This document shows, piece by piece, positions 37,101 to 46,100 of a stretch of 64,000 nt of DNA (its first letter is position 1; each line of letters starts with the position of its first letter). The notes beneath the pieces were generated by a model that searched no databases, was not told the origin of the DNA, and saw nothing but the letters and a program-made list of their open reading frames with translations. The DNA is from Ilex aquifolium (lineage: Eukaryota; Streptophyta; Magnoliopsida; Aquifoliales; Aquifoliaceae), in NCBI GenBank assembly GCA_951799425.1, contig OX637395.1, positions 10,270,451-10,334,450 of the forward strand. Direction: 5' to 3'. Made by a program: the position numbers and the translations under genes.

Positions 37101-40100
37101 GTTCTTTTTTCATTCATGTTTGTAACCTAATCTATACTGGGTGTCACTATTTTAATTCTTGAATAACTATGGTTCTTTAATGAATTTTTTTTTCAAGTTG
37201 TTAAATTTGAAAATAGTTAAGCAAAAGATGAAAAAGAAACAAAAAGCTAGCGTCTTTCCATTTAGACGACGTGATTATGTCAATTGATTATTTTTAGAAT
37301 GCAATAATGTTCAATATTCAATATTCAATATTTTGTCTATTTTAAATATGTAATATTAGCTTTTATTTTTGTTCAAATTTTGTGTCGAATCTTACGATTC
37401 ATGATTCTCAAATTTAAGATTCCGATTCACGATACGAATCGCGATTTAACAACTATGGCCGGAAGGCCTGGAACTTCAAATAAACCACAAACTTAACTTC
37501 ATAAGATCTTAATGTCAAATTCTTAATTTTTCTATTTTCATGATATCTTGCTCTGCATCAATTTGGTACAGCAAATTCTTCAGTTAATAGTGATTTTATG
37601 CAATTTTTTAACACGCTGTAGATTCTACTTGACTTTATACAATAAAAGGCTTGACAATAATTAGTTCGTGGTGAAAATAAATAACCTTGATGTGGTGCAC
37701 TCACCTAAGTGTTAAACTTAAGTAACTTGATGCTTGTGTCTTTTCTCTCCTTGACGGCTTCAAGGTCAGGTTTTATTGTTTTTACTGAATGAACTTTGGT
37801 AGTTAATTTTGGAATTTAAACAAAGGAGACTGTCATTCTTGCTTTAGGACTGAACTAAGAAAGCTTTTTAATTAGAACACCAATGCACTATTCTGTTTGA
37901 CTTGATTGTAGTTTTACTGCCCAAATTGTTCTTTCTGTTCAAAAAGTCTGCTTGCTGAACCTCCATGGACATATTTTTCTGCTTTTCAGCACCTTACAAT
38001 ATTTTTCTTCTATTCATAGTGACTGCTGTATATGTACTTTTGTGGGTTTATTTCCATTCAGCATCACCTGAAACTGGAACTAGAACTCCACAGTGGCTGA
38101 TATTCAAACATTCTGCGCTATATCTCTATGAATTTAACATACTTAAATATATGGTGAACTAGCCCTTGGTGGAATCTACTGTGAGTTAGTTTTCTCTAAA
38201 GTGGCATTAAGTTTCACAGTATCAGATTGGTGACACTTGGTGAATTAGTGGGTTGTTTGTGATTTGATTTTCTTGGTTCGACATTGCATAATTACTTGTG
38301 GGTTTCTATGGTGACTTTGGATGCTGGTAATGGTGGTGTTCATGGTGGCGGTTGTGATCCACTCCATAATGCTAGTCGTAGTGTGGTGATCTGTACACAA
38401 GTCATAGTGAAAGTGGTGGTTGTTTTGGCTGTGTTCATCGCTCTAAGTGGTATTGTACTTATTGTGGTGGCACATGACATATTGATAATTATTGTTGGGA
38501 TAAGTATGGAAGACCAACATATGCTAATCAGGCTTCTAATGACACTTCGGGTTCTCTAGTACATCAGATTTCTACCAATGGCTTAGTTGCATCTACTAGT
38601 GATTCTCACGATGATCTCTTTCAGCTTCGTCAGCTCATCTAGCAGTTAAAATAACTTTCTACTCGTATATCTGTTCCTACTACTGGTTTTACTAGTGGAG
38701 GTAACTTTGCATGTGTGGTTATTTAACCTTCTTCGTCATCTTGGATCATTGATTCAGGAGCTAGTGCTCATATGTCTGGTATTTCTTCCCTATTCTCAAA
38801 TTTTTGTTCCTCTAACTCACGTATTGGTTAGCTGATGGTTATTTTCACCGGTATATGAGACTGGTGATCTCTGTCCTACTCAATCTATGTCATTAACATT
38901 TGGGTTGTTTGTCGCTAATTTTTCCTTTAATTTGTTATTTGTGAGTCAGTTAATTAAGTCTTTACAATGTTCGGTAACGTTTTCTCCATTTTCTTGTATT
39001 TTTCTAGACTTCAAAACGAAGAAGGTGATTCGTATAGGGCATCAACACAATGACCTTTACTACTTAAATTCTAGTGATTCGATTTCTGACTTTGAGTGCT
39101 ACTGTGTTTTCTCTTCAGTGGCACTTCCGATTGGGTCATCCCTTCTTGCACAAATTGCGTTAAGGTATCCCTTGTTTGAGTTCTTTTTCTATGTTAGAAT
39201 GTGAAGCTTGTCAATTAGTTAAGCACCACTGTAATTCTTTTTCTTGTAGTTCTTCAAGTCGTCAGTCCAGTTGCACAAATTGCTTCAAGGTATCCCTTGT
39301 TTGAGTTCTTTTTCTATGTTAGAATATGAGGCTTGTCAATTAGGTAAGCACCACTGTAATTCTTTTTATCCTAGTTTTTCAAGTCGTCAGTCCACTCCGT
39401 TTCATGTTGTTCATATAGACATATGAGGTCTAGCAAGAGTCAAAAGTATTTTTGATTTTCAGTAATTTGTCATCTTTGTTTATGATTTCTCTTGCATGAC
39501 TTGGTTATTTTTATGAAAGACCGATCTGAATTACCTAAGGTCTTTACTACTTTTTATAATGAAATTCTGATTTAGTTCGATACTTGTATTAAAGTTCTTC
39601 GGTCTGATAATACCCTTGAGTATGTTCAATCATTTATGAAATTTTTTTGTACAAACCGTGACATTATCCATCAAACTACCTATCCTCATGCCTCTTAACT
39701 GTTGGAGATTAGAGCTCCTTCCTTTTTTACCCTTACTATGTTTTTTATATTTTGCCTAGACCACAAGGGTGTTTAAGTCACTTTGTACTATTATTTGGCT
39801 ATATATACGGAGCTCTATTCTTAGTTTGAGTATCCCTTTCACTTACATCTATTTCAAGTTGGTATCAGAACCATACCCTAACCCTAACCCTAACCCTAAC
39901 CCTAATCCTAACCTTCTCCATCATCCTCACCGGCAGTCAGCAGCTCTTATCCCCAATCACCACTAACTTCAGCCCTTACCTTCAGCAATGGCAACGAACC
40001 AGCGACAAGCCACAAACCAGACAATATACACCACCACCGACAAACCAGCCCAATATACGCCACCACTGACAAACCCTTACTTCTGACAAACCAGCCCAGC

Positions 40101-43100: not shown

Positions 43101-46100
43101 GGAGTATATCACAGTTTATGTCGGTTTGGTAGACTGGTTTGGTAGATTGGTTTTGGGAGCCTTTCATGTCGGTCGGTGGACTTAGGGGTTGGCTGAGTAT
43201 GTCGGTTGGCAGACTAGCTGGGTATTGTTTGTTGGTTTGGTGGAGCGTTTGGTGGTTTCGACTGGGTGGTATGCAACGGCTGTTGCTGTCGGTTTTCCTG
43301 GTGAGGATGAGTTACTGTCAGTGGGTATTGTTTGCTGGTTTAATGCTGTCGGTTTGGTGGAGTGCTGGGTGGTATGTAGCGGCTGTTGGTTGCTGGTGGC
43401 GGCACAGGTGGTTGCTGGGCTGTGGTAACAAGGTATCGGAGGCTAGGGTTAGGGTTAGAGGTAGGGGTTAGGTTTTTGGTTCTGATACCAACTAGAGACT
43501 TCTATTGTTGAGACCTCTACTATTAGTATTTTCACTTGGAATGTATCACTTGGTTCTCCCACTTTTATGTTTGACCAGTATACAATACCTACTGACACAG
43601 TTGCATTACCGGCATTGCCGAGTATGATCTCTCAGAAGGTTACGACACAGTTGTTGAATGGCCATAACTTTGCTGAGTGGTCACGCTCATTCTAGCTTTT
43701 CTTAGGCCGTGTAGGGAAGCTTTGTTGGCTGACGGGATCTCACCCAAAGCCGGTTGATGACGACCGTGGGTATTCTGCGTGGTTCTCTTAGAACTGTGCT
43801 ATTCTTGGATGGTTATTTGGTTCGATGGAGCCCTCTGTTTGTAGGATTCACCAGTTTCATAGCTCTGTTCCGAAGCTATGAAGCGCATTATTCGAGATGT
43901 ATTCTTAGTCTGGATGAGGAGTTCGTGTCAATGAGCTCTCTCAGGAGCTTTCATATGCTCGGCAGGGAGATATGACGGTTCAGGATTATTATAGCTATTT
44001 CACCCAGCGCTGGCTTGAGTATGAGACTTTACATCCTCTTGCTGCTATTCCAAAGATAGAGCCCGAAGGAGCAGCATTCCTGCATACTCGAGAGTAGGAG
44101 GATAGGATTTACAAGTTCCTTATGGGGCTTCGTGATGAGTTTGAGAGACCTCGTTCACAGATCTTGTCGATGATGAGACTTCTGTCTCTTTATGAGGTGT
44201 ATGCGATGATTGAGCAGCATGAGTTTCACGTCCGTATTGCATCACTTCCAGTTGCGGCCTTGACTCCTTTGGCCTACCAGATGGCCCTTGCAGCTGCTGC
44301 AGGGTCTCGTTCAAGATCCTTAGCCAGAGGTGGACAACACTCGAACCAGCGCCGTCAGGGCACCCCAGATCAGCGCAAACGAGGGGATTTTCGCCAGTGT
44401 GTTTATTGTGGTCGACCAGGACATCTCAGGGCTGCTTGCTGGAAGCTCCATCCGGAGCTTAAGCCGCCTCCTCGCGGCCATACTGCTACTATTGCTGAGG
44501 TACCACTATCTACTGTCGTTGCTCCTGCTGCTGCTCATATTGCTCCTCCTTGGCAGTGATATGGATGCTATCACTTCCCGATTGGATATACTTATGTTCG
44601 TTCTGACTTCTCAGGGTCCGACTACTGCTACTGCCACCACTACAGATAAATCACGTGCCTTTCGTGCTTGCGTCAGTCCGTCTCCCTTTTGGATGCTGGA
44701 CTCGGGTGCGAATGGTCATATGATAGGTGAGGCCCATCACTTCACCACTTTTGACGAGCAGTTACATGCACAGATTTAGCTAGCAGATAGGACACATGCC
44801 CCTATTATTAGTAGGGGTACAGTCTGCCTCTCAGATTGCTTTACATTACATTCAGTTTTTCATGCGCCAAAGCTGGCCGTGAATCTATTATCCGTACATC
44901 AGTTAGCCAGAGATTTTCACTGTGCGGTTGTGTTCTTATCTGATTCGTGTTATTTGCAGGACCTGAGTACTAGAATGATTATTATCAGGGGACATGAGAG
45001 AGATGGACTGTATTCACCTCTATCACCTGCACCTGCTTTGTTGTTATCTGTTCCTAGCTTGCATGCTAGTATTTTACCTAGTACTTGTCGTTATGATTTT
45101 TCATCACAAACTGTTCAATTGTGGCATGACCGTTTTGGGCATACAAATTTTAAATATTTATGTATGTTATTTCCTTCTTTGAGCAATGCTTGTGTTGGTG
45201 GGAAACTTGACTATGTTATATGTTCTCTATCGAAACATGTTCGGACCAGTTATATTGCTCGCATGCACCAGTCACCCAAACCATTTGACCTAATACACTC
45301 TGATATTTGGGGACCCTCTCCTGTTACTGCTCTGTCAGGTGCTCGATACTATGTGACATTTATAGATGACCATATCCGTTGTACTTGGGTCTACCTCTTG
45401 CATAAGAAGTCTGATGTACTCCCTGTCATCACTCAGTTTCTCCAGATGATTAAGACACAATTTGATGTCATTGTTCGTACTCTTCGTTCGAATAATGCCA
45501 AAGAATATGTGTCTGATGCCTTAGTGTCTCACCTTTCTTCCCAGGGTATCCTTCAGCAGCTCACTTGTCCATATACTCCTGAGCAAAATGGAGTTGCTGA
45601 AAGGAAAAATAGGAGTCTGATAGGGATGGTACGTTGTATGCTTAGAGGTATAGGGGTACCAAAATCTTATTGGCATTTTGCTGTTTTAACTTTTACCTTT
45701 CTGTGCAATCGTACACCGAGCCGTGTTCTTCAGCATAGGGCTCTCTTACAGGTCTTATTCCCTGAGCGGACACTTTTTCTGGTCCCCCCTTGTGTTTTTG
45801 GCTGCACATGTTTTGTTCAGGATCGGTCTCCTACTCGCCATAAGCTTGATGATAAAGTGATTTGTTGTGTCTTTGTGGGCTATTGTCATCAGTCTAAAGG
45901 GTATCGGTGTTATGATCCTATCAGGCGCCGTATGTATCACAATCTAGATGTTACCTTTCTTGAACATATTCCTTATTTTTCTTCCAGTCCTGTGTCTGTC
46001 CCTCCAGTTGATGATACTCCTTTTGATTTTTCGTTACCACAGGAGCCAGAGCCATTGGTCATTACCACTACAGAGTCATCAGTCTCTCCTTCTCTAGAGC

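What the first reader, a model, noticed from the sequence alone, without database searches (positions are those of the whole stretch)
39860..45450. Copia C contains an inverted duplication of its own 5' half, including a reversed PBS
Within one pair of LTRs and one 5-base target duplication there is a minus-strand copy of PBS, leader, gag, protease and half of integrase (43490 back to about 40230). It is followed at once by a plus-strand gag-pol starting near 43498. The reversed PBS is not bordered by an LTR. A single insertion of an already rearranged cDNA (strand switching or self-priming between two RNAs during reverse transcription) would explain it. The two arms differ by about 10%, so two sub-families may have been joined. 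The transcript would fold into a 2-kb hairpin, a natural source of small interfering RNAs against the family.
Basis: partly seen in the sequence, partly recalled or inferred. Interest (0 to 1): 0.75.

Follow-up and report, generated by a model that had tools for sequence, protein, structure and literature searches.

The report
Chimeric Copia element with inverted half
This is a dead jumping gene that carries, backwards inside itself, the front half of a different family member, probably because the copying enzyme switched strands between two packaged copies; it is a rare accident, unusually well preserved, not a working new system.

Summary
Between one LTR pair (39700-39859, 48030-48190) and one 5-bp target duplication (TTAAC) lies a minus-strand block, 43490 back to 40230: PBS, leader, gag, protease region and first part of integrase. 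It is followed directly by plus-strand gag-pol without its start codon. The joined flanks run through in 38 other copies of the host Copia element, so one insertion bounds the whole. Each junction was found once in the 800-Mb genome.

It is not a duplication of its own half. The arms differ by 11% (LTRs 4.4%), and each has closer relatives elsewhere than the other arm; a tree with the arms as sisters is rejected (AU p 0.0066). So two family members were joined. At the reversed PBS the join uses a 6-base match (ACTTGA) between the LTR/PBS border and gag codons 6-8. That is where minus-strand cDNA normally ends. The best explanation is strand switching between co-packaged cDNAs/RNAs, then ordinary integration. 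Microhomology-templated break repair inside an integrated copy is the main rival and is not excluded. A self-primed hairpin from one RNA is rejected. The small-RNA idea is geometrically possible and untested. New variant of known template-switch LTR elements.

The parts
39695..39699 (.). target-site duplication TTAAC, left
   Evidence: empty site
39700..39859 (+). 5' LTR, TGTTGG...TCAAGT
   Evidence: CAAGT before the PBS in 17 of 18 relatives
39860..39872 (+). PBS TGGTATCAGAACC (complementary to initiator tRNA-Met 3' end, recalled)
39873..40229 (+). leader A, truncated; no match found covers its 3' end
40228..40231 (.). junction 1, leader A(+) to integrase(-), about 2-nt overlap (CA)
40230..42224 (-). 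minus arm: gag (ATG at 42224), protease region, first part of integrase
42225..43477 (-). leader B, reversed; loop of the inverted repeat
43478..43490 (-). reversed PBS TGGTATCAGAACC, not bordered by an LTR
43491..43496 (.). junction 2: ACTAGA; ACTTGA in gag of 19 of 28 relatives, and ACTTGA is the complement of the LTR end
43497..45448 (+). plus arm: gag without start codon to integrase
45449..48020 (+). rest of integrase, reverse transcriptase, RNase H region (named from position), with several stops
48021..48029 (+). polypurine tract GAGGGGGAG (named from recall)
48030..48190 (+). 3' LTR
48191..48195 (.). target-site duplication TTAAC, right

Best explanation
A defective chimeric Copia element formed during one reverse-transcription event that used at least two different family RNAs in one particle. 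Inferred order: a plus-strand chain (LTR, PBS, 357 nt of leader A) switched by about a 2-nt match onto a plus-sense template at integrase. From there it ran as minus strand through protease, gag and leader B to the template end at PBS plus six U5 bases. Its 3' end ...ACTTGA then annealed to the complement of gag codons 6-8 on another minus-strand cDNA and was extended as plus strand through gag-pol to the LTR. Integrase then inserted the product normally into another Copia element. Shown: anatomy, one TSD, private junctions, microhomology, two parents. Inferred: that the switches happened before integration, and their order.
For: One TSD and matching LTRs. The joined flanks match 38 other places through the join, and the window itself only as two halves overlapping by the 5 TSD bases (40 scored of 268 candidates). 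Junction patterns occur once each in the genome; 1 of 40 and 1 of 41 listed matches span them. The minus block ends at PBS plus 6 nt, where minus-strand synthesis ends in the standard scheme (recalled). LTR end TCAAGT and gag ACTTGA in 19 of 28 relatives give a 6-nt homology. The arms are not each other's nearest relatives: minus arm joint last of 40 scored matches to the plus arm, 88% against up to 92%; plus arm joint 16th of 40 to the minus arm; AU p 0.0066. Arms differ more than LTRs, 218/1944 against 7/160, Fisher p 0.005. Recombination between co-packaged RNAs is reported for plants (PMC5668417, passages; PMC1950507, whole text).
Against: The same joins could arise after integration, by break repair copying another copy through the same 6-nt match; sequence alone cannot order the events. 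Two switches of polarity in one chain are needed. The minus strand would have to go six bases past the PBS, though the 5' RNA is usually degraded by then (recalled). The integrase part of the arms (27/425) does not differ significantly from the LTRs (p 0.43). The gag tree is mostly weak (4 of 27 inner branches starred) and lacks the minus arm's best match, C10:14076497, whose gag was not fetched. The window has ACTAGA, not ACTTGA, at the join, and 9 of 28 relatives lack ACTTGA there. No reads were available to exclude misassembly.
Confidence: 0.66

Rival explanations
1. Break repair with templated insertion: an ordinary element was inserted first; a double-strand break in its leader/gag start was repaired by copying 3.26 kb from another family member in inverse orientation, primed by the 6-nt TCAAGT/ACTTGA match and closed by about a 2-nt match.
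For: Both junctions have short matches (6 and about 2 nt), and the rest of leader A and the gag start are missing, as in end resection. One TSD and similar LTRs are equally expected.
Against: That the copied tract begins within six bases of the LTR/PBS border would be coincidence (my estimate, about 13 positions in several thousand). Both PBSs share a variant seen in 1 of at least 31 fetched sites, which separate donors would not predict. A 3.26-kb filler is long (recalled).
Confidence: 0.17
2. Nested insertion: a second family member inserted in reverse into the first, and two later deletions removed both its LTRs, its RT half, and part of the first element's leader and gag start.
For: Nested insertions occur here: this element itself sits in another Copia.
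Against: No LTR or TSD remnant seen at either junction; two deletions must each take exactly one LTR, one stopping at the PBS border; the minus arm's end branch (0.073) is not shorter than the plus arm's (0.052).
Confidence: 0.1
3. Self-primed hairpin: the minus strand of a single cDNA folded back on itself.
For: Geometry of junction 2 fits a fold-back primed by six bases.
Against: Arms would be sisters with no more divergence than the LTRs; rejected. It also does not explain junction 1.
Confidence: 0.03
4. Assembly error joining two family members.
For: No reads could be checked; the family is repetitive.
Against: One TSD, an empty site, and a junction with microhomology at the PBS border are not expected from misassembly.
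Confidence: 0.04

Closest known systems
Template-switching complex LTR retrotransposons (Sabot and Schulman 2007, PMC1950507, whole text read)
   Same: Single TSD, matching outer LTRs, two family members fused by switching between co-packaged RNAs.
   Different: [quoted passage not shown] here the joined piece is inverted, has no inner LTR and uses a 6-nt match at the PBS border.
Recombinant Onsen copies (PMC5668417, passages seen)
   Same: LTR retrotransposon family members recombine during reverse transcription of two RNAs in one particle.
   Different: No inverted product seen there: the word start 'inver' does not occur in its main text.
Retroviral autointegration products (recalled; PMC2644782 seen only in listing and start of abstract)
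   Same: Can produce internal rearrangements before integration.
   Different: Would put an LTR end at the inner junction; here there is none.
Proviruses with internal inversions (recalled)
   Same: Inverted internal segments in otherwise bounded proviruses.
   Different: There an inversion of one molecule; here a second copy from another parent.
Inverted-repeat silencing loci such as Muk killer (recalled)
   Same: Transcription through a long inverted repeat could make siRNA.
   Different: No evidence of transcription or small RNA here; arms 89% identical, element defective.

Membership tests
Ty1/copia LTR retrotransposon | integrase upstream of reverse transcriptase (Pfam rve, SH3_retrovirus, then RVT_2) | tested here: met
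   integrase in 44780-46465, RVT_2 in 46519-47223
Ty1/copia LTR retrotransposon | LTR pair, PBS, polypurine tract, 5-bp TSD | tested here: met
   PBS and polypurine tract named from recall
Template-switching complex (PMC1950507) | flanking TSD and similar outer LTRs | tested here: met
Template-switching complex (PMC1950507) | two parent elements | tested here: met
Template-switching complex (PMC1950507) | internal third LTR shared between two cores | tested here: not met
   no LTR at 40230 or 43491, second core partial and inverted
Autointegration product | LTR end joined to an internal site | tested here: not met
   reversed PBS joined directly to gag
Self-primed fold-back cDNA | arms from the same RNA (sister sequences) | tested here: not met
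   AU p 0.0066; ranks
Inverted-repeat siRNA locus | 21-24-nt RNAs mapping to both arms | not testable with these tools
   no RNA data; 19 perfect runs of at least 21 nt between the arms

The most novel reading that the evidence does not exclude
A fossil of intermolecular strand switching with change of polarity: the PBS-ended minus strand of one cDNA missed its normal partner and primed on another cDNA's minus strand at a six-base mimic of the LTR end in gag, and the resulting head-to-head chimera was still integration-competent. If recurrent, such products would be a steady source of family-wide hairpin loci. A second, different internal inversion in a relative (L026/L075) hints that internal inversions may recur.
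Probability: 0.4. Interest if true: 0.55.

Novelty: new variant of a known kind. Interest (0 to 1): 0.4.

Why it matters
It shows, with both junctions, the arms' separate origins and the insertion site readable, how a retrotransposon family could make an inverted chimera of two members in one round, a kind of product that the template-switching model with a shared third LTR does not cover and that could found long-hairpin loci. It is a single, old, defective copy, so the weight lies in the mechanism, not in present function.

Tried and rejected
Self-priming of one cDNA: rejected by ranks and tree test. Autointegration: no LTR at the inner junction. Nested insertion plus deletions: kept as a rival, disfavoured. 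Amplified rearranged subfamily: no second copy of either junction found. Leader A's parent: best match 84% over query 1-166 of 374 nt; of 29 matches none reaches beyond base 276 apart from the window itself, so the overlap at junction 1 rests on a neighbouring leader repeat. Best relative of the minus arm (C10:14076497, 92%): upstream of its gag lies what looks like another element's end, so its leader could not be compared. The 218-aa minus ORF at 42459-43115 is proline-rich leader without Pfam match and not counted as a gene.

Papers: searches (37 papers, 20 listed; 0; 1; 6; 4; 0; 2; 2; 7); PMC11899658 searched for 'inver' and other terms (only reference-list hits). I saw no description of an inverted two-parent LTR element in what these listings showed, which is no proof that none exists.
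Full report
Anatomy. The window is G000:C5:10270451-10334450 of an unnamed 800-Mb genome in 103 contigs. The element runs from 39700 to 48190, with TTAAC on both sides (39695-39699, 48191-48195), 5' LTR 39700-39859 and 3' LTR 48030-48190; the LTRs differ at 7 of 160 aligned sites, all transitions. Reading along the plus strand: LTR, PBS, a truncated leader (A), then in reverse orientation integrase part, protease region, gag, a 1.25-kb leader (B) and a PBS, then in forward orientation gag from about codon 7, integrase, reverse transcriptase, RNase H region, polypurine tract, LTR (PBS, protease, RNase H and polypurine tract named from recall and position). 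Pfam places integrase (rve, SH3_retrovirus, gag_pre-integrs) in 44780-46465 and RVT_2 in 46519-47223 on the plus strand, and gag_pre-integrs (at its cut-off) plus a Pol_BBD match below cut-off in 40182-40946 on the minus strand: Ty1/copia order. Both gag frames are broken by stops, and the plus gag has no start codon. The element is dead.

One insertion. The host of the insertion is another Copia element: RVT_2 lies downstream at 49312-49782, and an SH3 match below its cut-off at 48203-48520; two upstream open frames gave no match. A 174-base query of the two flanks joined, with one TTAAC, gave 40 scored matches of 268 candidates. 38 are other places at 78-85% identity that run through the join. 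The remaining two are the window's own two halves, query 1-80 and 76-174, overlapping by the 5-bp TSD. So everything between 39700 and 48190 is bounded by one target duplication.

Junctions are private. A 301-base query across 40230 gave 40 scored matches of 362 candidates; only the window spans it and the other 39 begin at query base 131, that is at 40230. A 241-base query across 43491 gave 41 matches (40 scored of 335 candidates); only the window spans it and the others begin at query bases 85-109. Short patterns over the junctions, with up to 1 and 2 mismatches, occur once each in the genome. Integrase across 45448, where the plus arm ceases to be duplicated, is continuous in all 40 scored matches of 667 candidates, so that end is set by the minus block alone.

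Two parents. The arms differ at 218 of 1944 sites (gag-protease 185 of 1500, integrase 27 of 425), against 7 of 160 in the LTRs; Fisher p 0.005 for all, 0.0016 for gag-protease, 0.43 for integrase (an earlier rougher count with 8 of 161 gave 0.015, 0.004 and 0.70). Rates may differ between regions, so the stronger test is by relatedness. With the plus arm (803 nt of gag) as query, the minus arm is joint last of 40 scored matches (327 candidates), 88% against up to 92%. With the minus arm as query, the best other copy is C10:14076497 at 92%, and the plus arm is joint 16th of 40 (330 candidates) at 88%. A tree of 30 rows (both arms and 28 relatives out of 45 loci on hand; own loci, identical rows and alignments under 700 nt dropped; C10:14076497 not in it) does not put the arms together. 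Only 4 of its 27 inner branches are starred, but holding the arms together costs 30 log units, AU p 0.0066. The two leaders are also different sequences: 88% over the first 50 nt and only patchy after that. Hence the inverted piece is not the element's own half.

Junction 2. In 17 of 18 relatives with a recognisable PBS the LTR ends in CAAGT directly before it (L019 has CATGT). This element's LTR end is TCAAGT, whose complement ACTTGA follows GGTTCTGATACCA. In gag, 19 of 28 relatives have ACTTGA at codons 6-8, 7 have ATTTGA, 1 ACTTAA, and 1 is not alignable there. The window reads ...GATACCA-ACTAGAGACTTCT, which is the overlap with one change. So the reversed strand extends six bases past the PBS and continues in gag by a 6-base match. 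Junction 1 joins leader A to integrase. Fetched relatives show integrase continuing ATG-ATTAA, the window has ATG-TGGAGTTTTG, and a neighbouring leader repeat suggests a 2-base overlap. No match covers that end of leader A, so this is less certain.

Mechanism. In the standard scheme (recalled), minus-strand cDNA ends at the PBS and waits for plus-strand strong-stop DNA. Here a strand with that end, plus six bases, is joined to a plus-sense gag copy of another family member. That is what would arise if the end had annealed, by ACTTGA, to a different minus-strand cDNA in the same particle and been extended. A second switch in leader A completes the molecule, which then integrates normally. Recombination between two packaged RNAs is reported for the plant retrotransposon Onsen (PMC5668417, passages seen), and fused elements with one TSD have been attributed to template switching (PMC1950507, whole text read; 2 such complexes in about 7 Mb of Triticeae sequence, 1 in rice, 1 in maize). 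The main rival, break repair within an integrated element copying another copy from the same 6-base match, predicts the same final sequence; only the coincidence with the PBS border, and the shared rare PBS variant, speak against it. I therefore give 0.66 to the reverse-transcription reading, of which the integration, private junctions and two-parent steps are shown and the timing is inferred.

Shared PBS variant. Both PBSs read TGGTATCAGAACC. Of at least 31 CAAGT-TGG sites in fetched relatives (the print was cut at 12 types), 23 read TGGTATCAGAGCC and only L053 reads TGGTATCAGAACC. This may mean that the two PBSs were made in the same event, that both parents belonged to one lineage, or that both mutated. 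I cannot decide.

Hairpin. The arms would pair over about 1.95 kb at 89%, with leader B as a 1.3-kb loop. 19 perfect runs of at least 21 nt total 588 nt, longest 60; 751 of 1963 24-mers of the minus arm and 774 of 1922 of the plus arm occur in other fetched loci (those loci were chosen for similarity). A small-RNA source is possible, with no evidence for expression.

How common. Of 62 fetched loci (some overlapping cuts of the same place) one, L026, has family pieces in mixed orientation. With its neighbour L075 it is an element at C8:9362246-9367202 in which an RT/RNase H stretch (46949-47437 in window terms) lies inverted between 45645 and 45665, while 46968-47533 is missing from its own place; about 126 nt of other sequence lie beside it. 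That is a different rearrangement, with almost no duplication. The 20 loci L009-L028 also lack most of gag, an abundant gag-deleted subfamily.

Noticed in passing
L026 with L075 (G000:C8:9362246-9367202): A related element with an RT/RNase H segment displaced and inverted inside its integrase region, almost without duplication, next to about 126 nt of unknown sequence.
   Followed up: partly
L009-L028: All 20 integrase relatives fetched lack most of gag between its start and the zinc-finger region: an abundant gag-deleted, presumably non-autonomous subfamily.
   Followed up: partly
39860-39872 and 43478-43490: Both PBSs carry the rare variant GAACC instead of GAGCC.
   Followed up: partly
39146-39394: 124-nt tandem duplication (93%) in the host Copia element just upstream of the insertion.
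   Followed up: no
39700-39859, 48030-48190: LTRs begin TG but end in CAAGT, not CA; the TSD position supports this end, and 17 of 18 relatives show CAAGT before the PBS.
   Followed up: partly
39875-39910, and leaders of relatives: Many leaders begin with telomere-like CCCTAA repeats just after the PBS.
   Followed up: no
61164-62172: Tandem array with units of about 171 bp.
   Followed up: no
7034-7300 and 11364-11631: 94% direct repeat pair about 4.3 kb apart, perhaps LTRs of another element.
   Followed up: no
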